DNA from: an uncultured Acetatifactor sp.
GTDB lineage: Bacteria; Bacillota; Clostridia; Lachnospirales; Lachnospiraceae
Direction of reading: 5' to 3'
Assembly: GCA_947625255.1 (NCBI GenBank)
Contig: CANQNT010000009.1
Span: forward strand, 1 to 64,000
Length of the DNA: 64,000 nucleotides
Within the stretch, counting starts at the first letter, position 1. Each line of letters starts with the position of its first letter. A program made the translations under genes and the position numbers. The notes beneath the pieces were generated by a model. That model ran no database searches and was not told the DNA's origin. It worked only from the letters and a program-made list of their open reading frames with translations. This document shows, piece by piece, positions 38,488 through 50,615 of this stretch.

Positions 38488-38706
38488 GGACAACAGGGAG
38501 CGGGTTTAAGTTTAAATAATCTAATCTATTCCCACATTGAGTATGTCCTGTCCGCCTTGCATGGAAACAAATCCAAGGTGGGTAATATCAAAGCGTATCT
38601 TTTGACGACGCTGTATAATGCGCCGCTGACGATCAATAACTACTATAATGCAGAAGTAAGCCATGATCTCTATGGGCGGGTAGAAAACCCTAAAATTTTT
38701 ATATAG
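38488..38706 (+). pseudogene. C-terminal relic of a DUF6017-type replication initiator
   Basis: The open stretch reads LIYSHIEYVLSALHGNKSKVG followed by NIKAYLLTTLYNAPLTINNYY and ends at TAG 38706. This matches my recollection of the C-terminal DUF6017 segment found on replication initiators of Clostridia conjugative elements and plasmids. There is no start codon with a ribosome site, and a stop lies just upstream, so only the tail remains. It marks an old integrated element beside the Wadjet operon. Confidence 0.6.
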
Positions 38707-39167: not shown

Positions 39168-39197
39168 TTGACAATGCCCGGTCATTTTGTTTATACT
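39168..39197 (+). promoter_or_regulatory. Sigma-A-type promoter upstream of jetA (distal)
   Basis: TTGACA at 39168-39173 and TATACT at 39192-39197 are 18 bases apart, close to consensus. Transcripts from here would carry a leader of about 320 bases before jetA, including the inverted repeat at 39275-39429. Confidence 0.6.
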
Positions 39198-39274
39198 TAT
39201 AAAAAGTTTTATTTATTCCTTATTTTGTCTGGTTTAATAATATGATTAGGGCGTCAAAAGGGCAATCGCCTCTT

Positions 39275-39429
39275 CAAGCTCCTTGAAAACTGAATATATT
39301 GTTGTAACATACAGGACATTTGCCCGCTTTTCTGGTATAATTAAGGTGTTGATATCAGATACGGGGGTAACTGCCATACCGTATCTCTAAACAAATCTGC
39401 AGCAATATATTCGGTTCTCAAGGTTCTTG
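39275..39429. repeat. 32-bp inverted repeat flanking 91 bp in the jetA leader
   Basis: The arms at 39275-39306 and 39398-39429 match at 26 of 32 positions when one is reverse-complemented, and three of the six differences become G-U pairs in RNA. The core GAATATATTG is identical. A smaller stem (GATACGG with CCGTATC) lies between the arms. It could be a regulatory RNA structure or a small non-autonomous element; no target-site duplication was found. Confidence 0.65.
39313..39341 (+). promoter_or_regulatory. Extended -10 promoter inside the inverted repeat (proximal to jetA)
   Basis: TATAAT at 39336-39341 is preceded by TGG, giving an extended -10. AGGACA at 39313-39318, 17 bases upstream, is a partial -35. 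The promoter lies in the loop between the two repeat arms. Confidence 0.5.
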
Positions 39430-39522: not shown

Positions 39523-40935
39523 ATGGTTCATTTATTTGATATGGTTCCATCCGGTTTTTTTAACTGTTTGGCCAGCGGGAGCAATAATCAGATCTATGCG
39601 GACTGTCTTCAGGTGATCTATGAACAGTATGACCGGGAGATCAGCTATCGGATTTCACGGAGCAGGATTCGCGACGCGATCGCGGCGTACCTGCTGGAAA
39701 ACCATATTGATTTTATAGAGCAGGATCCGGAGCAGAAGGAGAGCAAAAATTACAATGACATGGCGAATGGAATCATCCGCAGATTCTGTTCCAAGGAAAT
39801 CGGCTGGCTGGAAGAGGACAATGACGACGCCACCTATGAAAAAAACATCATTATGACGGAACAGGGGATCTTGCTGACGGAGTTCCTGCAAAGGCTGATC
39901 AAACCGGAACGGGAGGAATTCTCCAGTTATGTTTACAATATTTATAATATTCTGCAAAATCCGGATCAGTGGAAACAGGATCCCTATGTGGACGGTCTGA
40001 AAAATATCTATCGGAACGCCAGATTATTGTCAAAAGCGTTAAAGCGGCTGGCGACCTTTATCAAAAAAATCATTGAAAGAATGGTAAAGGAAGAAAGTAT
40101 GGAAAGCCTGACGGAAAATTTGCTGGAGTATTGTGACGGCAGCTTTATACGGGAATATGCGAGACTGACAAAGCAGCAGAACATTCATATTTACCGATCT
40201 TTCATCCGGATGAAGCTGGATGAAATCGGGAATGACTCGGAACAAAGCGAGTTATTGGCAATCGGCTGTGCGCTGGAAGAGGATCTGGAGGAAGCTGCGG
40301 CCAGGGAATTTGTGATGGATATGATACAGACGACGAAGCGCTTCCTGGTGGAGGACTACGACCGGATCATGAGAGACATAAAACATAAGATAAACATTTA
40401 TCTGCAAATGGCCGTTGGACGGGCGAGATTCTTAAAAAATCGCGAGGCGGATATGAGGGGAAGTGTAGAACAGACCCTGCGTTATCTTGTGGAGGAGCTG
40501 GAGACGATCGGCTGGAAAGAAGATCTGCCGGCCGGGATGCAGGGGTTGTTTGCCCTGGAGCGAAATGAATTTATCGATGAAGGCTCCGTCCGGTATCCGA
40601 GGAATCCCCAGCCAATCGACAGGGAAACTTCCGTTGAACTGGAAGAAATGACGCAGGAAGATATCGACCGGGCAAGAGAGGAGCAGGAGCGGGAAGCGTA
40701 TAATCCTTATGCAAAGGATAAGATGAAGGAATATCTGGAAACGGTGATGGCCGGACACGGGATGATCGCCTGTGAAGACCTGCCCCTGCAGAGTAAACGG
40801 GATTTGCTTTGCGCCCTGTCGGCCGTCGCTTACAGCGATGAGAATGGTTATGCGGTGCGGCTTTTGGATGGGTACCTGGAGACCAATCAAATGCTTCTGC
40901 GAAGATTTGACATCAGAAAGGAGGACAAGCCTTGA
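39523..40935 (+). CDS. jetA: Wadjet defence protein JetA
   Basis: The 470-residue protein matches JetA of the Wadjet system in size, position and general alpha-helical character (MVHLFDMVPSGFFNCLASG at the start; winged-helix-like N-terminal half). JetA is the kleisin-like partner that, with JetB and JetC, forms an SMC-type motor extruding plasmid DNA. The ATG at 39523 is chosen because TGAGGG lies about 8 bases upstream; the TTG at 39490 has no ribosome site. Its TGA overlaps the jetB start by 4 bp. All four jet genes follow in order and are intact. Confidence 0.88.
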   Translation: MVHLFDMVPSGFFNCLASGSNNQIYADCLQVIYEQYDREISYRISRSRIRDAIAAYLLENHIDFIEQDPEQKESKNYNDMANGIIRRFCSKEIGWLEEDNDDATYEKNIIMTEQGILLTEFLQRLIKPEREEFSSYVYNIYNILQNPDQWKQDPYVDGLKNIYRNARLLSKALKRLATFIKKIIERMVKEESMESLTENLLEYCDGSFIREYARLTKQQNIHIYRSFIRMKLDEIGNDSEQSELLAIGCALEEDLEEAAAREFVMDMIQTTKRFLVEDYDRIMRDIKHKINIYLQMAVGRARFLKNREADMRGSVEQTLRYLVEELETIGWKEDLPAGMQGLFALERNEFIDEGSVRYPRNPQPIDRETSVELEEMTQEDIDRAREEQEREAYNPYAKDKMKEYLETVMAGHGMIACEDLPLQSKRDLLCALSAVAYSDENGYAVRLLDGYLETNQMLLRRFDIRKEDKP

Positions 40936-41597
40936 ACCTGGAAGACTATTGGAACGAGTTTACCTCCGCTGAAAAGGATTTGTTCCAAAGATCCTGCAGG
41001 CGTCTGCTGAAAATGACGTTCATTGTGCGGGATAAGGATGAAGAAAACAAGAAAGCCTATTATTTTATTTCCAAAAGACCGGAACCCTTTTCGGTTTATT
41101 TTGGATATATTGGATTTGATATTATGGTGGATCGGGATAATGGGGTCATTATGCTGCGCAACTGCGCCGACATGGGAGAAAAGGGCAAAATACAGTCCAA
41201 CCGCAGAACCTTGAAGAAGTTAGAGAGTATCGTGCTGTGCTGTCTTTGGACGCTGTATGCCGACCGGGTACGTGCCGGGAATTTGTCCCCTTCCTTTTTG
41301 GTCTCCATCGTGGATTTAAACTTTGAACTGGAAAAATACGGCGTCAAGGAGCTGATCGATAATAAGAAGCTGATAACGGATATTCTGACCCTTTTTTCCG
41401 GGTTTAATCTTTTAGAAGTAAAGGGGAAGGTGGGTGAGGCGGACTGTCTGATTCGTTTGTATCCATCCCTTCAATTTGCGCTGGAAAGTGAAGAATTCAT
41501 AAGATTTGCAGAAATTACACAAAAGAGAATGCTTGAGCAGGATGGAGAGGTGGAATCGGAGGAGGAAAAGGATGACGAAAAGGATGACGACGAATAG
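40932..41597 (+). CDS. jetB: Wadjet defence protein JetB (DUF4194)
   Basis: The 221-residue protein fits the KITE-like JetB subunit (DUF4194), with two winged-helix-like halves and a very acidic C-terminus (EEEKDDEKDDDE). It begins with TTG at 40932, 8 bases after AAAGGAGG, overlapping the jetA stop. JetB dimers join JetA and the JetC heads in the motor complex. The last 26 bp overlap the start of jetC, so the operon is tightly coupled. Confidence 0.88.
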   Translation: MNLEDYWNEFTSAEKDLFQRSCRRLLKMTFIVRDKDEENKKAYYFISKRPEPFSVYFGYIGFDIMVDRDNGVIMLRNCADMGEKGKIQSNRRTLKKLESIVLCCLWTLYADRVRAGNLSPSFLVSIVDLNFELEKYGVKELIDNKKLITDILTLFSGFNLLEVKGKVGEADCLIRLYPSLQFALESEEFIRFAEITQKRMLEQDGEVESEEEKDDEKDDDE

Positions 41598-44500
41598 AAA
41601 AACCGCTACCAAATTATTGCTGGTGCAGTGGGCGAGATTTCAAAGGATTTGCGTCAATCTGGAAGGTTCCACCCTGATCACCGGGGTAAACGGAAGCGGG
41701 AAGTCCACGATCCTTGACGCGATGACCTATCTGCTTACGGGAAATACCCAATTTAATAAAGCGGCGAAGGACCGTGACCGGACGGTGCTGGCCTATGTGA
41801 GAGGGGATACCAGAAGCAACGGCCCCGCCAGATATTTGAGATCCGGAGAAGTGGTCAGTTACGTGGCGATGGAATTTTGGTCCCCGGTGGACAATGCGTT
41901 TCTTGTGGCGGGGGTCTGTGTGGAGTCGGCAAATGAAACCACCCATAAAAGCAGCTGGTTCATTTGCAGGGACGCCAGAATGGATCAAATCAATTTTACC
42001 CGCACAGAAGGGAAAATGCTCCGGATTACTCCCCGCAATGAACTGGCGGTGAAGGGGCAGGTGATGAGATCCGCCGAATTTCTGGGAAAGGACAGAGGGG
42101 TCGAACAGGTGCTGCGCGCGCTGGGGTTACGGTGCGACGTGGCGAAATATCGGTCGAAGCTTGTGAAAATGATGGCCTTTAATCCGGAGAACAATATCGA
42201 CCAGTTTATTCAGGCGTGTGTTTTGGAACAGGGAGAAGTGGAATCCCTGAAGGAGCTGCGGGAGCAGAGACAACGGTTTGAACAATTGAAGGGCGTTTAT
42301 GAGAATCTCAAAGCCAGTAAGGGAAAGCTTAAGGAAGTAGAGCAAAGAATTGAAGAATATGAGAACAAGCAGAGGAATTATCATGTCCGGAATTTAATGC
42401 TCTCTTATCAGGATGTGCGGGAGCAGGAGGCGCAGGAAGAGGAATGTCGGCTCTCTATGAAAGCTTTTGAACAGAAACTGCTGGAATTAAAGGGGCGGAA
42501 GGAGGAACTGGACAAGCGGTGCAAGGATGCGGAGGAACGTTATCGGATCGCGATGAATAATGACGTGTTCCAGGGAATGCAGGAAACCTTGAATGAACTT
42601 AAGCGCCAAAAGGAGAAGCTGGAAGAAAAACGAAAGGAAACTGAAAAGGAACTGGCGAAGCTGAAGCGGCTGCAGATGGGGATCGCGGACGTGCTGAAAT
42701 GGCTGGAGGATTATCTGGCAGTTTCAGAGCAGGACAGGAAATATTTATGCAGTCTTGCGGAAATGGAATTTCCGACAGAGCAAAAAATACATGCCTTTGT
42801 GCGGTTCGCGGATACGGTTCTAAGACAAAAGGATGCTTTTCATGAGGAAAAAGTACATTTGGGGGATCAAATCCAGGAATTGAACCGACAAATCCTGGAT
42901 TTGGAACAGAAAATCAAGCGGCTGCAGGCCAACATAATGGTCTTTCCCAAGGAAATTGAGGATGCCAAAAGAATCATTCAGACGGAACTGGAGACAGAGG
43001 GAATCCGCACGGAGGTAAAGATATTTGCGGAGCTCGTTCAGGAAATCCGCAATCCCGAATGGCGTGCCGCAATTGAAACTTTTCTGGGAAGAAAACGGTT
43101 CTACCTCATTGTAGATGGAAAGTATTGCCATAAGGCCTTGGAAATTTTACAGAGGAAAAAGCTGCATGGGGCAAACGTGGTGATCTCCGATAAGCTGCCG
43201 GATACAAGCGAAGAACCTGGTTCAGCGGCGGAAATTTTAACGATTCCCAATATTTACGCCAGAAGGTACGCGAATTACCTGTTAAACGGAATTTATTTAT
43301 GTGATTCTCTGGAGGAGCTGCATGATCATCCGAAGGGCGGCTTGATGCGAAACGGAATGCTGGCAAAAAGCTATGCGGTTTCTTATATGGATGTCCAAAA
43401 GACGGAATTCTGTCTTGGACAGGATGCGGTCAAATATCAGCTTCAAAGGGCGGTCGAAGAAAAGCGGGAAAAAACAGAAAGGCTGAAAACTCTGCAAAAA
43501 CAGCAGGTTCAGGCAGATGGGCAATTAAAGGCGTTGGATGCCATTGATTGGAAAGCGGAGCATTATGATTTTGGAGCGGCCGCGGCGTTTCAGGATATCG
43601 AAGAACAGGAAAAGAGCATTGCCGGGGATATGGACAAGATCAGCAGAAATCCGGATTTTATGGCGGTATTGCAGGAGCAGGAAAAAGCGGGTACGGAACT
43701 TGAAAGGTTAAAAGCTGCGAGGGATATGACGGTAGGAGATATCCGGGCCTGCGAAAAGGATCAGGAGACAGGACGGACCAGATTGAAGGAACTGGCAGGC
43801 AAAATATACCGGTTGAAACAGGAGTATTCCGAAAAGCGTCTGAAGCATCTGGAACTGGAAAAGCAAATGTTGGAGGAATATGAGAAGTTGAGAGCCCGGA
43901 AGGACGGCTGGCAGGTCATTACCTTGAAAACAGTCACTAACATAAAAGCGGAGGTGGAAGTCTGCGTCCGTCAGATGGAGAACGTGCAGCTGGAATATTG
44001 TAAACTGGCGGAAATCGATATTCAGAAAAGGGGCGTGTCCTACATCCCGTTTTACAGGAGCGAGTACCGCAATATTGCCAATATAAAAATTGAAGAGGCC
44101 AGGCAGCGTCTGGACGAACAATCCGTAAAGCTGGAAAGCGCCTTCATGAACGATTTCGTAGCGGAGATCAATGAAGCGATCCGTAATGCCCGGGAAGAGA
44201 TCGCCGCGATTAACAAAGAACTCAAACAGCTTCCCTTTGGCAGGGATACTTATAAATTTGTCATGAAAGAGAAGCCGGAACGGGATATCTTTTTCCGGAT
44301 CTGCAGGCGGCTGGAAAATTATATGGGTATGCCGGAAGTCTACATGAATTCGGCGAGGGAAGATGAGGAGATGGAAAGGGATATCCAGGAATTTATGGGC
44401 GTCATCCTGGACGAGGAGGACGAATCGGAATATACGGATTACCGTAAATATTTTGTATATGATATGGAAATCGTAAGTAGGCAGGGGGAGACGGAGATCG

Positions 44501-44832
44501 TTTCCGACCTGTCCAAGAAGCAGGGATCGGCGAGCAACGGGGAAAAACAGACGCCCTACTTCATCATTCTGGCCGCCAGTCTGCTCCAATGTTATCCTCG
44601 CCAGACCTGCTGCGCCCGACTGGCCTTTATTGATGAAGCCTTTTCCGCGCTGTCCAGAGAGCGGATCGAACAAATGGTAAAATATCTGAGCGATAATCAT
44701 TTTCAGGTTTTCTACGCCGCGCCGCCGGAGAAGATCGGCAGTATCGGATCCCATATTGAATCCACTGTGAGCCTGGTCATGACGGGAAGATATACAAACG
44801 CCATAGAAGGGTTGGTAAGGGATGGTATATGA
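41572..44832 (+). CDS. jetC: Wadjet defence ATPase JetC (SMC-like)
   Basis: The 1086-residue protein is the SMC-like ATPase of Wadjet. Walker A GVNGSGKST is near residue 37, followed by a long coiled coil (about 230-400 and 600-900) broken by a hinge-like region around 470-600. The signature-type SNGEKQ is near 986 and Walker B FIDEAFSAL near 1018. The ATG at 41572 has GGAGGAGG upstream and lies inside the end of jetB; the longer ORF in the track is not needed. ATP hydrolysis powers loop extrusion that lets the complex sense small circular DNA. It overlaps jetD by 11 bp. Confidence 0.93.
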   Translation: MTKRMTTNRKTATKLLLVQWARFQRICVNLEGSTLITGVNGSGKSTILDAMTYLLTGNTQFNKAAKDRDRTVLAYVRGDTRSNGPARYLRSGEVVSYVAMEFWSPVDNAFLVAGVCVESANETTHKSSWFICRDARMDQINFTRTEGKMLRITPRNELAVKGQVMRSAEFLGKDRGVEQVLRALGLRCDVAKYRSKLVKMMAFNPENNIDQFIQACVLEQGEVESLKELREQRQRFEQLKGVYENLKASKGKLKEVEQRIEEYENKQRNYHVRNLMLSYQDVREQEAQEEECRLSMKAFEQKLLELKGRKEELDKRCKDAEERYRIAMNNDVFQGMQETLNELKRQKEKLEEKRKETEKELAKLKRLQMGIADVLKWLEDYLAVSEQDRKYLCSLAEMEFPTEQKIHAFVRFADTVLRQKDAFHEEKVHLGDQIQELNRQILDLEQKIKRLQANIMVFPKEIEDAKRIIQTELETEGIRTEVKIFAELVQEIRNPEWRAAIETFLGRKRFYLIVDGKYCHKALEILQRKKLHGANVVISDKLPDTSEEPGSAAEILTIPNIYARRYANYLLNGIYLCDSLEELHDHPKGGLMRNGMLAKSYAVSYMDVQKTEFCLGQDAVKYQLQRAVEEKREKTERLKTLQKQQVQADGQLKALDAIDWKAEHYDFGAAAAFQDIEEQEKSIAGDMDKISRNPDFMAVLQEQEKAGTELERLKAARDMTVGDIRACEKDQETGRTRLKELAGKIYRLKQEYSEKRLKHLELEKQMLEEYEKLRARKDGWQVITLKTVTNIKAEVEVCVRQMENVQLEYCKLAEIDIQKRGVSYIPFYRSEYRNIANIKIEEARQRLDEQSVKLESAFMNDFVAEINEAIRNAREEIAAINKELKQLPFGRDTYKFVMKEKPERDIFFRICRRLENYMGMPEVYMNSAREDEEMERDIQEFMGVILDEEDESEYTDYRKYFVYDMEIVSRQGETEIVSDLSKKQGSASNGEKQTPYFIILAASLLQCYPRQTCCARLAFIDEAFSALSRERIEQMVKYLSDNHFQVFYAAPPEKIGSIGSHIESTVSLVMTGRYTNAIEGLVRDGI

Positions 44833-46048
44833 AATGTTGGGCGAATGGCAGAAGAATGCGTTAGGACAGCTGCTGGATCAGTATGAGAACAGTAAAACCT
44901 ATCAGAGGACAAATAAGGTCGTGCAGACTTTTTCTGTCGTGCCATCCAGGGTATTCCCGGAGTATGACTCTGATTTCACCAGCATAGATGTTATTCATGA
45001 TTTTGAACAGCAAATGGGAGAACTGGAACAGGAGGGACTTTTGACGATAAAACGTCAAAACCAGGTGATGGAAAAGCTCGTCGCCAATCCGGGAAAGTGG
45101 GCGTGTTATTATGAGGTTTTAGGCAGAAAAGGAAAGAATCAGCTTGCACGGGAGCAAATAGAACTGTATCAGGAATATCTGGGGATCCATGCCATGTTGG
45201 ACTGTTTTTGCAAAAAGCAGATTGGAAGGCTGGAAGAAGGCAAAAAAGCGGAATTCCCCATCGAAGAAGCCCGAGGGATATTAAAGCTGTGGAAATTCCT
45301 TTTGGAGAATCAGGAAGAAATACTGGAACGGGAATTATCCATAGCGGTTTTGGGAGACAGTAAAACCTGGGAAAAGCATTATCGTGCCAAAGTATGCCGC
45401 TTATTAAAGAACTATGGGGATTTTGAGGAATTGCTCCAGGGGGTGGATGATGAAAAGGAGGTATCACGGATCCTTTTAGAAGAATGCCAGGTGGTTCCCA
45501 ACCCCTCCTATGTTTATTTGAAGGGCGATGCGGAGCTTATGCTTGCGGATGGCCAAAAGCTTCGAATTGGTTTGGATCTTCCGGTGGCCTTTACGGAAAA
45601 GACATTAAAGGGCATAAAAAAGATAACCATTTTGGCTTCCAGGGTTATGACCGTGGAGAATTTAACATCCTTTAACAGATTGGAGGAAAGTGATTTCTTT
45701 TACATTTTTTTGAGCGGATATCACAACCGATTGAAACAAATGCTGCTGTCCAAGATCTATGAAGAGAACAAAAGGATGGAATGGTTTCATTTTGGGGATA
45801 TCGATCCGGATGGATTTTATATTATCGAGCATTTAAGGAAAGGAACAGGGATCCCTTTTCAGCCCCTGTACATGGGAATCTCCATTTTAAGAAAATATGA
45901 CTCTTACACGAAACCCCTGAGTGAAAACGATGTCCGAAAGGCAAAGGCGCTGTTACAGCAGGGAAAGTATACCGAAGTCATGGAATATATGCTGCGGGAA
46001 AAGAAAAAGTTAGAGCAGGAAATTGTCAGCTGGCTGGAAAAGGGTTAG
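44822..46048 (+). CDS. jetD: Wadjet defence nuclease JetD (DUF3322/DUF2220, Toprim)
   Basis: The 408-residue protein has an N-terminal DUF3322-like half and a C-terminal DUF2220/Toprim half. The Toprim DxD motif is seen in WFHFGDIDPDGFYIIEHL near residue 324. JetD is the topoisomerase-VI-like nuclease that cuts the circular plasmid after loop extrusion. It overlaps jetC by 11 bp and ends the four-gene operon. All motifs needed for activity that can be judged by eye are present, so the system is likely functional. Confidence 0.9.
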   Translation: MVYEMLGEWQKNALGQLLDQYENSKTYQRTNKVVQTFSVVPSRVFPEYDSDFTSIDVIHDFEQQMGELEQEGLLTIKRQNQVMEKLVANPGKWACYYEVLGRKGKNQLAREQIELYQEYLGIHAMLDCFCKKQIGRLEEGKKAEFPIEEARGILKLWKFLLENQEEILERELSIAVLGDSKTWEKHYRAKVCRLLKNYGDFEELLQGVDDEKEVSRILLEECQVVPNPSYVYLKGDAELMLADGQKLRIGLDLPVAFTEKTLKGIKKITILASRVMTVENLTSFNRLEESDFFYIFLSGYHNRLKQMLLSKIYEENKRMEWFHFGDIDPDGFYIIEHLRKGTGIPFQPLYMGISILRKYDSYTKPLSENDVRKAKALLQQGKYTEVMEYMLREKKKLEQEIVSWLEKG

Positions 46049-46135
46049 AAAACAACAAGGTCCGGTTTTATTATGAGGATTCTCCAAAGTCCAAGCATCC
46101 TGATCAGACTTTTACTTTTGAACTGGTGAAGACAA

Positions 46136-46555
46136 GTGACCGGCGCGGGAATGACCTGGCTGGAGCTGGTTCCGGATAATACAAACAGGGTTATCACGGT
46201 TAAATACTTTCCGGATGGCACTCATGACCCAGAGAGAATTCATTACCCTGCTCCCGTGAATGCCAAGTATCAGCCATCCATATGGTATGTGGATGTAACG
46301 GACGGAATCGAATATGACGAGTATGGGATTGCGGTTTATATCGATAAGTACCTGGACGTAATCTTCACCCCTGAAGGGGATGTAAAAGTGGATGACCGTG
46401 ATGAATTAGATGCGGCGTACTTATCGGGCGATATTTCAAAGGAGCAATATGAGGCAGATTGTCGAAGACAGGATCGCTTCCGGGGAGCCGGTCAAAATTT
46501 GGAAGAAATCCCCTTAATTTTTTCCGATTTTACACTCTGTTGTATTGCAAAGTAA
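46136..46555 (+). pseudogene. DUF402-like fragment with a damaged 3' end
   Basis: The core (VWYVDVTDGIEYDEYG-type sequence; YIDKYLDVIFTPEGDVKVDDRDELDAAY) is a DUF402 domain. The likely start is the ATG at 46151, without a clear ribosome site, and the usual N-terminal strands may be missing. Near 46445 a frame change is suspected: the neighbouring frame reads RQIVEDRIASGEPVKIWKKSP and stops at 46517, which fits the end of such proteins better than the annotated tail. DUF402 proteins include phosphohydrolases; no role can be given for this one. The 46049-46135 stretch before it shows only scraps. Confidence 0.5.
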
Positions 46556-46646
46556 TTTAATATCCTATAAAATGTAAATTGCCGGAAGAAAACCAGATGT
46601 AAATGTTTGATTGCGTGAGCGGTTGAGAAAGGAATCAAGAACTAAA

Positions 46647-47285
46647 ATGTTATTTGGCAGAAGAAAAAAGGTGGCCGATGAGCTTTTTCAGCATATGGAT
46701 GAAGCTTTTTTCAATAATGGCAAAAGTATGGCCGATTTGGAAAAGAAGCTTACGGAGCAGCTTCAGGCCGCAAGGGAAGAGAGCAGTAAAATGCTTCGCA
46801 GACAATCCGGGTCGCTGGAGGATATTCTGGAAGAATTGCAGCGGCAGGGGGAAGAGAAGGAGAATACCGAGGGGCAGCTTCTGGAGCTTAAAAAACGGGA
46901 AAAGGAATTGGCGGAGTTGTGTTGTTTTCTGTTGGGGCAGAAGGAAATGATACTCAAACAGCTTCTGGAGGAAGGTGTATTGCCGGAGAATGTAAGATCG
47001 GGGTGGCAGAAGCAGGCGGACATAATGGAACAGGAGTCGGAGAGGCTGGAGAGACGATGTAGTTTTCAGAGAATTGGAATATGTGGGGAAAAGGTGGATT
47101 ATGACCGTCATGAGATTCTGTCGGTTTGCCCGGCCAGACGCTTAGAAGAGGACGGAACCATAGCAAGGGTATTTTCCAGAGGCTATTATTATCAGGGACA
47201 TATTCTGAAAAAAGCACAGGTTGCCGCATATAAATATTCTGATGATACTGCCGGGGCAAGGGGTATGCCTTTTGGGCTTGAATAA
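46647..47285 (+). CDS. GrpE-like nucleotide exchange factor
   Basis: The 212-residue protein has a long N-terminal coiled coil (about residues 18-140, LEDILEELQRQGEEKENTEGQLLELKKREKEL). A small beta domain follows (EDGTIARVFSRGYYYQGHILKKAQVAAYK), which resembles the C-terminal domain of GrpE. GrpE releases ADP from DnaK. The adjacent gene encodes a DnaK-like protein 59 bp downstream, so a dedicated pair is likely. The ATG at 46647 follows GAAAGGA. Overall similarity to housekeeping GrpE is low, and the name rests on the C-terminal pattern and context. Confidence 0.65.
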   Translation: MLFGRRKKVADELFQHMDEAFFNNGKSMADLEKKLTEQLQAAREESSKMLRRQSGSLEDILEELQRQGEEKENTEGQLLELKKREKELAELCCFLLGQKEMILKQLLEEGVLPENVRSGWQKQADIMEQESERLERRCSFQRIGICGEKVDYDRHEILSVCPARRLEEDGTIARVFSRGYYYQGHILKKAQVAAYKYSDDTAGARGMPFGLE

Positions 47286-47344
47286 ACATCATATTTCAGG
47301 ACGGAAAAGATAAAGCGGCGCCTTATGGCGCGGACAGGAGTAAT

Positions 47345-49051
47345 GTGGATAAAACAATTATTGGAATCGATCTGGGAACCACCACCACGGAAGTGGCTGT
47401 TTTCAGGAATCAAAAGGCGGAAATGATATTGAATTTTAATGGAAGCGTCGTAACCCCGTCCGTTGTCGGACTGGACGAGTCCGGGAATATGATCGTGGGG
47501 GAGAAGGCGCGGGCCAGATATATTTTGGAGCCGGAACGGACGGCTATAGAGGTGAAGCGGAAAATTGGTTCCGGGCAGCCAGTCAGGCTGGGAGGGGAAA
47601 CTTTTTCGACGATGGAGCTGTCCTCTTTTCTGCTTGCCTATACGAGGCGGTATGCCTCGCAGTATTTGGAGGAAGAGATTACGAGGGCTGTGATTTCGGT
47701 ACCCGCTTATTTTGACGATATCCAGAGGCAAGAGATCGTGGAAGCGGGAAAAAAGGCGGGATTTACGGTGGAGCGTCTTATCAATGAGCCTACCGCGGCC
47801 GCTATGAGCTACGGAATTCAGCATATGGAGGAAGAAAGCCATATTTTGGTATATGATCTGGGCGGCGGCACTTTCGATGTCACGCTGTTGGAAATGTTCG
47901 ACGGCGTTCTGGAGGTTAAGGCGAGCAGCGGGGATAACTGTCTGGGGGGCAAGGATTTTGATGAAAGGCTGATCGGATGGCTGTGCGAAAGATTTGAGGA
48001 AAAGCATGGAGTAAAGCTTTCCAAGGATGTATATGCCATGGCCAGATTGAAAGAAGAGGCGGAAAAGTGTAAGATCGCACTGAGCACCCAGGAAGAGGTG
48101 ATGATCCAGATTCCCATGCTGGCGGAGAAAGATCATGTGCCCCTGGCATTGGAGGAAAGGATTTCCAGGGGACAATTCGAGGAATTGATCGCGGATTTGA
48201 TTGAGAGAACACATCGGCCGATGAATGTCGTATTGGCTGACAGCGGAGTGGGCAGGGATGAACTTGCCATGGTATTGTTGGTGGGCGGTTCCACGAGAGT
48301 CCCGTTGGTGTCCAGGGATCTGGAAGCGTTTCTGGGAATCAAACCGGTCACGGAGGTTCATCCGGATTATTGCGTGGCACAGGGAGCAGCCATATGCGCT
48401 GCCATGATAGCCGGAGAACTGGGCGAGGACGGCGGACTGGTGATGACGGACGTAAATCCCTATACTCTCGGGATCAGGACGGCGGATTATGATGATAATG
48501 ACATTATGAGCGTGATTATTCCCAGGAATGTGACGATACCCGTTACAAGGAGCGATACTTTTTGCACAATGTATCCCGGGCAGAGGACGGTTGAGGTGCA
48601 GGTGTATCAGGGAGAATCAGAAACCGCCAGCGAAAACCATTTCCTGGGAAATTTCCTGATGGAGGGCATTCCCGAGAACTGGCGAGAAAGGGAAAAGCTT
48701 GATATTGCCTTTACTTACAATATCAATGGAATGCTTCAGGTGGAAGCAACCGTGGTCAGCACAGGGAAAAAGGCGAATCTGACCATAGATCTGATGAACG
48801 CGGAGAATGGAGTGGAAGTCCGCAAGGATGTCTCTGGCTGGAGGGAGGCTGAGTGTTCCTCCGCATACCGATCGGTCATTCGTAGGGCCGAGAAAAGGCT
48901 GCAGTCCGGTACGGCGGAAGAAAAAGAAAGCATAATCATATTGGAGGATTTGCTGTACCGCCTGAAAGAAGCGATTTTGGAAGAAAATGAGTTGTTGGCG
49001 GATGAGATTGCTGATGATCTGGAAGAGCTTCTGGAGAATCCGGAGAAGTAG
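47345..49051 (+). CDS. DnaK-like Hsp70 protein with short lid
   Basis: The 568-residue protein has the complete Hsp70 ATPase: IGIDLGTTTTEVAVF, VYDLGGGTFDVTLLE and LLVGGSTRVPLV. The peptide-binding beta domain is present (PGQRTVEVQVYQGES), but the helical lid is only about 80 residues, so the protein is some 40-70 residues shorter than housekeeping DnaK. The interdomain linker reads GLVMTDVNPYTLGI rather than the usual DVLLLDVTPLSLG. It starts with GTG at 47345, preceded by AGGAG. With the GrpE-like gene upstream and the J-protein downstream it forms a separate chaperone set. No hrcA or CIRCE element is present, so it is unlikely to be the main dnaK. Confidence 0.85.
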   Translation: MDKTIIGIDLGTTTTEVAVFRNQKAEMILNFNGSVVTPSVVGLDESGNMIVGEKARARYILEPERTAIEVKRKIGSGQPVRLGGETFSTMELSSFLLAYTRRYASQYLEEEITRAVISVPAYFDDIQRQEIVEAGKKAGFTVERLINEPTAAAMSYGIQHMEEESHILVYDLGGGTFDVTLLEMFDGVLEVKASSGDNCLGGKDFDERLIGWLCERFEEKHGVKLSKDVYAMARLKEEAEKCKIALSTQEEVMIQIPMLAEKDHVPLALEERISRGQFEELIADLIERTHRPMNVVLADSGVGRDELAMVLLVGGSTRVPLVSRDLEAFLGIKPVTEVHPDYCVAQGAAICAAMIAGELGEDGGLVMTDVNPYTLGIRTADYDDNDIMSVIIPRNVTIPVTRSDTFCTMYPGQRTVEVQVYQGESETASENHFLGNFLMEGIPENWREREKLDIAFTYNINGMLQVEATVVSTGKKANLTIDLMNAENGVEVRKDVSGWREAECSSAYRSVIRRAEKRLQSGTAEEKESIIILEDLLYRLKEAILEENELLADEIADDLEELLENPEK

Positions 49052-49065
49052 TATTTGCGGCGAAG

Positions 49066-49124
49066 CTGCGGCTGTGGTAATGGCGGCCGCGGCGACATTG
49101 CGGCCGCCATTACCACAGCCGCAG
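49066..49124. repeat. Perfect 25-bp GC-rich palindrome with a 9-base loop
   Basis: Arms at 49066-49090 and 49100-49124 are exact reverse complements, containing GGCGGCCGC with a NotI-like core. The element lies between the Hsp70 stop and the J-protein gene. No T tract follows, so it is not a standard terminator, although it could still slow RNA polymerase or protect the mRNA. Short strings GACATTGCGG and GACATTACGG repeat around it. Confidence 0.75.
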
Positions 49125-49208
49125 TGACATTACGGCAACAGTGTGAAAGTGACATTTAAAAATATTGCGTGGAATTGATTGCCCCCCAAAACGGGCAGAG
49201 GTGTATGG

Positions 49209-50615
49209 ATGAATGATTATGAAGTACTGGGGATAAAGGAAAGTGCGGATGAAAAGGAAGTCAAGCGGGCGTATTTTAGGCTTGTCCGTCAGTATTCCCC
49301 GGAGAAAGACCCGGAAAAGTTTCAGCAGATCAGGCAGGCCTATGAGAATTTAAAAGAAGGCGGAGGAAAGAAAGGGCCGGCTTTGAAAATCCCGGAGGAC
49401 CCCTTCGCGGGGAAGATGTTTCAGCAGATAGTAGACTTGTACAGACGACATGACTACGAGTCTGCTATAGAGACTGCGGAAGAGGCGATCGGATATTACG
49501 GTGCATGGGAAGGATTCCTCTACTATCTGGCTTTGTCGCAGCTCGAAAACGGGAATACCGGAAATGCCGTCAAAAATTTTGAGAAGCTGACGGAACTAAG
49601 TCCTGATAGCCTGTTTTTTGCTCAGAAGCTTGCATTATCCTACATGGAGCGAGGATATGGCAAAAAGGCGCATAAGGCATTTGAAAAGGCTTATGGTATG
49701 GGCTGCAGGGAGATAGATTTTCTGAATGATTATGCCATGAACTGCTGGGACAGAAAAGATTATGCGCGTGGGATGGCTTTGCTGATGGAGCTGATAAAGA
49801 TTGGCAGCGTCGATCGGAAAAAGAATATGTTGCCTTTGATGAATGCCTATGCAGGATTATTTCGGTTCTGCACTTCTTTTGCATGTGAGCAGTTGGAAGA
49901 AATCCGGCAAAGATTTTATTCCTTTCTGGAAGATGCCGTCCCCTATATGGCGGAATATGAGGATAATCTTGAGGATGCGCTTTGCACCATCGTATATGAC
50001 TTGAAAAAAGGGAGAAAGTTCTGTATGGAAGACAGAAAGTGCATCTGCGAGAGGCTGAGGAGAGGACTCGGCAGCGGGAAGGCGGATGCCATGTGGAAGA
50101 ATGTGGAGAATAGCATGGACCGCATGCTGATTTCAAATGACGACAGGCTCTCTGACCCCTGGAAAGCCTGGAATGAATTGCTTATTGCGCAGGAAGGGGA
50201 AGAGAAAATAGATCCATCGGTCGTACGTTTTGCCCTTTTGGATTTTAAGCTTTGTATATTGGAAGAATGGCCCGCTATCAGGGCGGAGATAGAAGTCATC
50301 AGGGACAACTATCCTGATTTTTATGATGTTATCCGCGAGTATGTGGAAACACTTGGGAGTACCGCAAATATAGATTATCTGCGCAGTAAGATGAAGAAAG
50401 ACTATGAGAGGCTGGGACGTTATATGTCGATGGGTATGTACGAAGAGAAATACGGGAAGACGCAGAAACAGCCTGACCCCGGGGAACTATGGGAGTCTGA
50501 CCATAATGATTACGTGGAACCTTGTGTGCGCAGTCAGCCGAAGATAGGCCGCAATGATCCTTGTCCTTGTGGGAGCGGTAAAAAGTATAAGAAATGCTGT
50601 GGAAAAGGCATTTGA
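49209..50615 (+). CDS. J-domain-like / TPR-like / SEC-C protein
   Basis: The 468-residue protein starts with a J-domain-like segment ([29 protein letters not shown]). The HPD tripeptide that stimulates Hsp70 is replaced by SPE at residues 30-32. A helical region with TPR-like repeats follows (about 70-430; [26 protein letters not shown]). The C-terminus is a zinc-binding SEC-C motif, [17 protein letters not shown], known from SecA. It is the likely co-chaperone of the preceding Hsp70. The ATG at 49209 lies 8 bases after GCAGAGG. Whether SPE supports Hsp70 stimulation is open. Confidence 0.8.

What the first reader, a model, noticed from the sequence alone, without database searches (positions are those of the whole stretch)
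39523..46048. Complete Wadjet plasmid-defence operon (jetABCD)
Four intact, overlapping genes in the order jetA, jetB, jetC, jetD, with the SMC-like Walker A, signature and Walker B motifs in JetC and the Toprim DxD motif in JetD. Known Wadjet systems cut small circular DNA after loop extrusion. The gene order fits the type I arrangement; type assignment is from memory. The system predicts resistance to plasmid transformation in this strain.
Basis: partly seen in the sequence, partly recalled or inferred. Interest (0 to 1): 0.7.

Follow-up and report, generated by a model that had tools for sequence, protein, structure and literature searches.

The report
Ordinary type I Wadjet plasmid-defence operon
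This gut-type bacterium carries an intact four-gene Wadjet system, a known machine that recognises small circular DNA such as plasmids and cuts it; it is a normal member of a known, already studied kind.

Summary
The observation and the interpretation both hold. Four open, overlapping genes lie at 39523-46048: jetA 39523-40935, jetB 40932-41597, jetC about 41584-44832, jetD 44822-46048. All four match PADLOC type I Wadjet models best, nearly full length (7.8e-70, 5.9e-71, 6e-170, 1.1e-134), and Pfam JetA, DUF4194 and JetD_C. JetC ATPase motifs and the acidic JetD residues E279, D326, D328, E398 and E400 are conserved across relatives, matching the metal-binding and proposed catalytic residues of the solved nuclease MksG. 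All 65 relatives (of 80) in which all four genes were detected keep the order A-B-C-D. None has the downstream GrpE-like/Hsp70/J-protein genes nearby, so those are chance neighbours. JetA occurs in 7 of 37 genomes searched from the genus, in diverged lineages at other places where this can be seen. A scrap of a DUF6017 gene lies upstream. The mechanism (loop extrusion, then cutting of small circles) is taken from work on other Wadjets; activity here is untested. Ordinary; low interest.

The parts
39523..40935 (+). jetA, kleisin-type subunit, 470 aa
   Evidence: PADLOC JetA1 7.8e-70; Pfam PF18982 JetA 340 bits against a cut-off of 26; predicted fold (pLDDT 75.6, pTM 0.40) matches MukF and E. 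coli Wadjet 8as8_E and 8q72_E
40932..41597 (+). jetB, KITE-type subunit, 221 aa, TTG start
   Evidence: PADLOC JetB1 5.9e-71; Pfam DUF4194 2.2e-28; N-terminus alignable in relatives
41584..44832 (+). jetC, SMC-like ATPase with hinge, about 1082 aa
   Evidence: PADLOC JetC1 6e-170; SbcC_Walker_B, AAA_29 and SMC_hinge in Pfam; profile hits solved JetC 8as8 at 1.2e-27; key motif residues invariant or nearly so in 23 sequences
44822..46048 (+). jetD, Toprim nuclease subunit, 408 aa
   Evidence: PADLOC JetD1 1.1e-134; Pfam JetD_C and TOP6A-Spo11_Toprim; E279, D326, D328, E398, E400 invariant in 32 sequences; fold matches MksG 8b7f, Topo VI A, Spo11, JetD 7til
39168..39341 (+). possible promoters upstream of jetA: TTGACA-18-TATACT at 39168-39197, and an extended -10 site TGGTATAAT ending at 39341
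   Evidence: consensus scan only; not evidence of function

Best explanation
The locus is a complete, intact type I Wadjet operon. JetC (SMC ATPase), JetA (kleisin) and JetB (KITE) would form the dimer-of-dimers motor that extrudes DNA loops. On a small circle the two motors meet, which activates the Toprim nuclease JetD, and JetD cuts the DNA. The cell should therefore lose or refuse small circular plasmids (below roughly 50-100 kb). Shown here: family membership, intact frames, conserved catalytic residues, conserved operon order, purifying selection. Inferred from other Wadjets: loop extrusion, size sensing, cutting. Not shown: expression or activity in this strain.
For: Type I PADLOC models best for all four proteins; Pfam JetA, DUF4194, JetD_C. 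JetC profile against the PDB: Wadjet JetC 1.2e-27 over about 1066 positions, MukB 1.7e-7 over about 200. ATPase motif residues conserved. JetD acidic residues invariant and matching MksG E236, D279, E349, E351 by motif and order (PMC10123090). JetD model (pLDDT 91.5) matches MksG, Topo VI A, Spo11 and P. aeruginosa JetD. Of 80 relatives, all 65 in which the four genes were all detected have the order A-B-C-D on one strand, and JetC was found in 78. dN 0.08-0.18 with saturated dS. Mechanism: PMC10586767; native clostridial example: PMC12287153.
Against: Nothing found argues against membership. NCBIfam has no Wadjet model that rings. JetA and JetD are too divergent to hit solved Wadjet proteins convincingly by sequence, and the JetA structure match is weak in TM-score. 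The literal IFDR motif reported at the JetB N-terminus of a studied system is absent here.
Confidence: 0.96

Rival explanations
1. A MukBEF/MksBEF-like chromosome-organising condensin rather than a defence system, with JetD an unrelated neighbour.
For: JetA fold resembles MukF most closely; JetB weakly hits MksE below the Pfam cut-off.
Against: JetC matches Wadjet JetC far better than MukB. jetD overlaps jetC by 11 nt and follows it in nearly all relatives. JetD catalytic residues are invariant. Patchy presence in the genus, 7 of 37 genomes, is unlike a core condensin.
Confidence: 0.02
2. An intact-looking but silent or inactive Wadjet: the genes are kept but not expressed, or a subunit carries a harmful substitution.
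For: No expression data; upstream DNA is not shared with relatives and contains a mobile-element scrap.
Against: All frames open, catalytic residues intact, purifying selection, promoter-like sites upstream.
Confidence: 0.05
3. A larger system in which the downstream GrpE-like, Hsp70 and J-domain genes (46611-50615) work with JetABCD.
For: They lie on the same strand, beginning within 0.6 kb of jetD, and close relatives of this second Hsp70 are rare in the genus.
Against: None of 80 jetD loci has any of these genes nearby; 54 of the 80 have at least 4.6 kb of sequence beyond jetD. The cassette occurs in a genome of the same genus in which no JetA or JetD match was found (G001).
Confidence: 0.02

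Closest known systems
Type I Wadjet (JetABCD), E. coli GF4-3 (PDB 8as8, 8q72) and P. aeruginosa PA14 (7til, 8dk1-3)
   Same: Four subunits: kleisin, KITE, SMC ATPase, Toprim nuclease; JetC alignable over nearly its full length with 8as8; fold matches for JetA and JetD
   Different: Sequence strongly diverged (only JetC clearly detectable by sequence); literal IFDR motif not seen at the JetB N-terminus
jetABCD of Clostridium cellulovorans (PMC12287153) and Bacillus cereus Q1
   Same: Chromosomal Bacillota system; conserved essential JetD residues are described there
   Different: No direct sequence comparison made here
Wadjet operons of Lachnospiraceae MAGs (L055, L056, L126)
   Same: Nearest relatives found: JetA 82-83%, JetB 81-85%, JetC 73-75%, JetD 71-73% identity, same order
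   Different: Different flanking genes (none of the window's neighbours found)
MksBEFG of Corynebacterium glutamicum (MksG 8b7f)
   Same: JetD model's best match by fold (6.0e-09); same metal-binding and E-x-E residues (PMC10123090)
   Different: Actinobacterial; the candidate Tyr258 of MksG is reported there as not conserved in JetD

Membership tests
Wadjet type I (JetABCD) | JetA matching the DUF5716/JetA family | tested here: met
   PF18982 340 bits against a cut-off of 26.2; PADLOC JetA1 7.8e-70
Wadjet type I (JetABCD) | JetB matching DUF4194 | tested here: met
   PF13835 99.5 bits against 32.7; PADLOC JetB1 5.9e-71
Wadjet type I (JetABCD) | JetC an SMC-like ATPase matching JetC better than MukB or SbcC | tested here: met
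   PADLOC JetC1 566 bits; SMC_prok_B 53 bits and Rad50 24 bits; PDB JetC 1.2e-27 against MukB 1.7e-7
Wadjet type I (JetABCD) | JetD with Toprim domain and catalytic acidic residues | tested here: met
   JetD_C; E279, D326, D328, E398, E400 invariant in 32 sequences; fold match to MksG, Topo VI A and JetD
Wadjet type I (JetABCD) | Gene order A-B-C-D in one operon | tested here: met
   Overlapping genes, same order in 65 of 65 relatives with all four genes detected
Wadjet type I (JetABCD) | Type I rather than II or III | tested here: met
   Best models are all type 1 (JetC1 6e-170 against JetC2 7.1e-11; JetD1 1.1e-134 against JetD3 5.4e-05 and JetD2 7.1e-04)
Wadjet type I (JetABCD) | Restriction of small circular DNA | not testable with these tools
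   Needs a plasmid uptake assay
MukBEF/MksBEF condensin | SMC matching MukB; no nuclease subunit | tested here: not met
   JetC prefers Wadjet JetC; nuclease JetD present

The most novel reading that the evidence does not exclude
This clade of Bacillota and spirochaete Wadjets couples its nuclease to the motor by a different contact than the studied proteobacterial systems: JetB lacks the literal IFDR motif, while JetA begins with a conserved N-L-F-D-x-I-P-x-x-F-F stretch.
Probability: 0.08. Interest if true: 0.35.

Novelty: new member of a known kind. Interest (0 to 1): 0.12.

Why it matters
It predicts that this strain resists small plasmids, which matters for anyone trying to do genetics in it: removing a native clostridial Wadjet raised plasmid uptake about 100,000-fold (PMC12287153). 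It adds no new principle.

Tried and rejected
Chaperone cassette as a fifth component: rejected, 0 of 80 linked, and present in a genome without detected JetA or JetD. Conserved regulatory RNA in the leader: the strong hairpin at 39275-39429 (z -6.1) matches no Rfam family, is not shared with relatives and has no second full copy in the genome, so it looks like a chance or mobile-element leftover. Defence island: PADLOC scans of selected neighbours found no other complete defence system; only part of the window was scanned. Plasmid absence: one family of rolling-circle Rep proteins was not found in the genome, but the tool's controls were silent too, so this says nothing. Single-sequence PDB searches missed JetA and JetD.

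Full report
What is there. Searches show four open frames on the + strand at 39523-46048 with overlaps of 4, 14 and 11 nt (the middle one depends on the jetC start). The frame of jetC opens at 41506 with TTG, but relatives begin to align from about 41584, so the true start is probably the ATG there.

Identity. All four proteins hit PADLOC type I Wadjet models best and over nearly their full lengths. Pfam gives JetA, DUF4194, SbcC-type Walker B with an SMC hinge, and JetD_C. NCBIfam has no Wadjet model that rings; generic SMC models score low. A profile of 23 JetC sequences finds solved E. coli Wadjet JetC at 1.2e-27 over nearly the whole length, against 1.7e-7 for MukB over about 200 positions.

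Catalytic parts. In JetC, Walker A glycines and lysine, the signature serine and glutamate, and the Walker B D-E pair are invariant in 23 sequences, other motif positions nearly so. In JetD, E279, D326, D328, E398 and E400 are invariant in 32 sequences. In MksG the metal ligands are E236 and D279, and the proposed alternative nucleophiles are E349 and E351 (PMC10123090). The spacing and the E-x-E pair agree; the correspondence is by motif and order, not by a residue-level superposition. The JetD model (pLDDT 91.5) finds MksG, Topo VI A, Spo11 and P. aeruginosa JetD as its top solved relatives, with modest TM-scores, which is plausible for a two-domain protein solved in open and closed forms. 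The JetA model is poorer (pLDDT 75.6, pTM 0.40) but finds MukF and E. coli JetA.

Relatives and surroundings. A scan of species genomes gave 424 confirmed relatives of JetD, of which 80 were fetched, mostly Lachnospiraceae and other Clostridia, with some Treponema and other spirochaetes and a few others by record title. All 65 loci in which the four genes were detected keep the order A-B-C-D on one strand; JetC was missing from two, both short contigs. The nearest relatives are Lachnospiraceae MAGs with 71-85% identity per protein. In the genus, 7 of the 37 genomes searched have a JetA match, some only on short contigs; the complete ones fetched belong to diverged lineages at other sites. This patchy pattern is usual for defence systems.

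Neighbours. Downstream lie a damaged-looking DUF402 frame, a GrpE-like protein, an Hsp70 and a J-domain/TPR/SEC-C protein. None occurs beside jetD in the 80 relatives, 54 of which have at least 4.6 kb beyond jetD, and the cassette occurs in G001, where no JetA or JetD match was found. They are not part of the system. Upstream, near 38.5 kb, lies the tail of a DUF6017 gene, a family I know from integrated mobile elements; it may mark arrival by, or a later insertion of, such an element.

Mechanism. Following the reviewed model (PMC10586767), JetABC would extrude DNA loops as a dimer of dimers. On a small circle the two motors meet, and JetD cuts. Large or linear DNA escapes. Everything in this paragraph up to here is taken from other Wadjets. 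In Clostridium cellulovorans, deletion of native jetABCD raised conjugative plasmid uptake about five orders of magnitude (PMC12287153), so a strong phenotype is likely here if the operon is expressed.

Differences worth a line. The review reports a JetB N-terminal IFDR motif contacting JetD. JetB here begins MNLEDYWNEF without it, whereas JetA begins MVHLFDMVPSGFF, a stretch conserved as NLFDxIPxxFF through the clade. I could not check the studied sequences directly, so this is a lead only.

Verdict. Correctly identified, complete, ordinary. Selection analysis (dN 0.08-0.18, dS saturated or near it) supports a maintained function.

Noticed in passing
46611-50615: Cassette of a GrpE-like protein, a second Hsp70 (about 40% identical to the main DnaK-type matches in the genus) and a J-domain/TPR/SEC-C protein; a 60% identical Hsp70 with GrpE-like and J-protein neighbours is in one other genome of the genus (G001, L018). 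A rare accessory chaperone set of unknown client.
   Followed up: partly
39275-39429: Strong imperfect inverted repeat (30-nt arms, 83% complementary, RNA fold z -6.1) with an extended -10 promoter-like site inside it, about 100 nt before jetA; not shared with relatives, no Rfam match. One arm-like 19-mer recurs on contig C50 and, with 2 mismatches, on C3.
   Followed up: partly
38516-38704: Tail of a DUF6017 protein (2.3e-14) with no start, likely a remnant of an integrated mobile element.
   Followed up: partly
46048-46555: DUF402 frame whose N-terminal part seems to lie in another frame just upstream (about 46050-46170); probably a decayed gene.
   Followed up: no
L070:10001-11185, L074:2442-3671, L054: JetD matches with an internal stop in two relatives, and a TGA inside the JetD match of G006 (L054): some Wadjet operons may be decaying, or the assemblies contain errors.
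   Followed up: no
7707-34393: Polysaccharide-use cluster: two sugar ABC transporter sets, two long heparinase-like proteins, a GH43-like and a GH88/105-like enzyme, by reading of the translations only.
   Followed up: no
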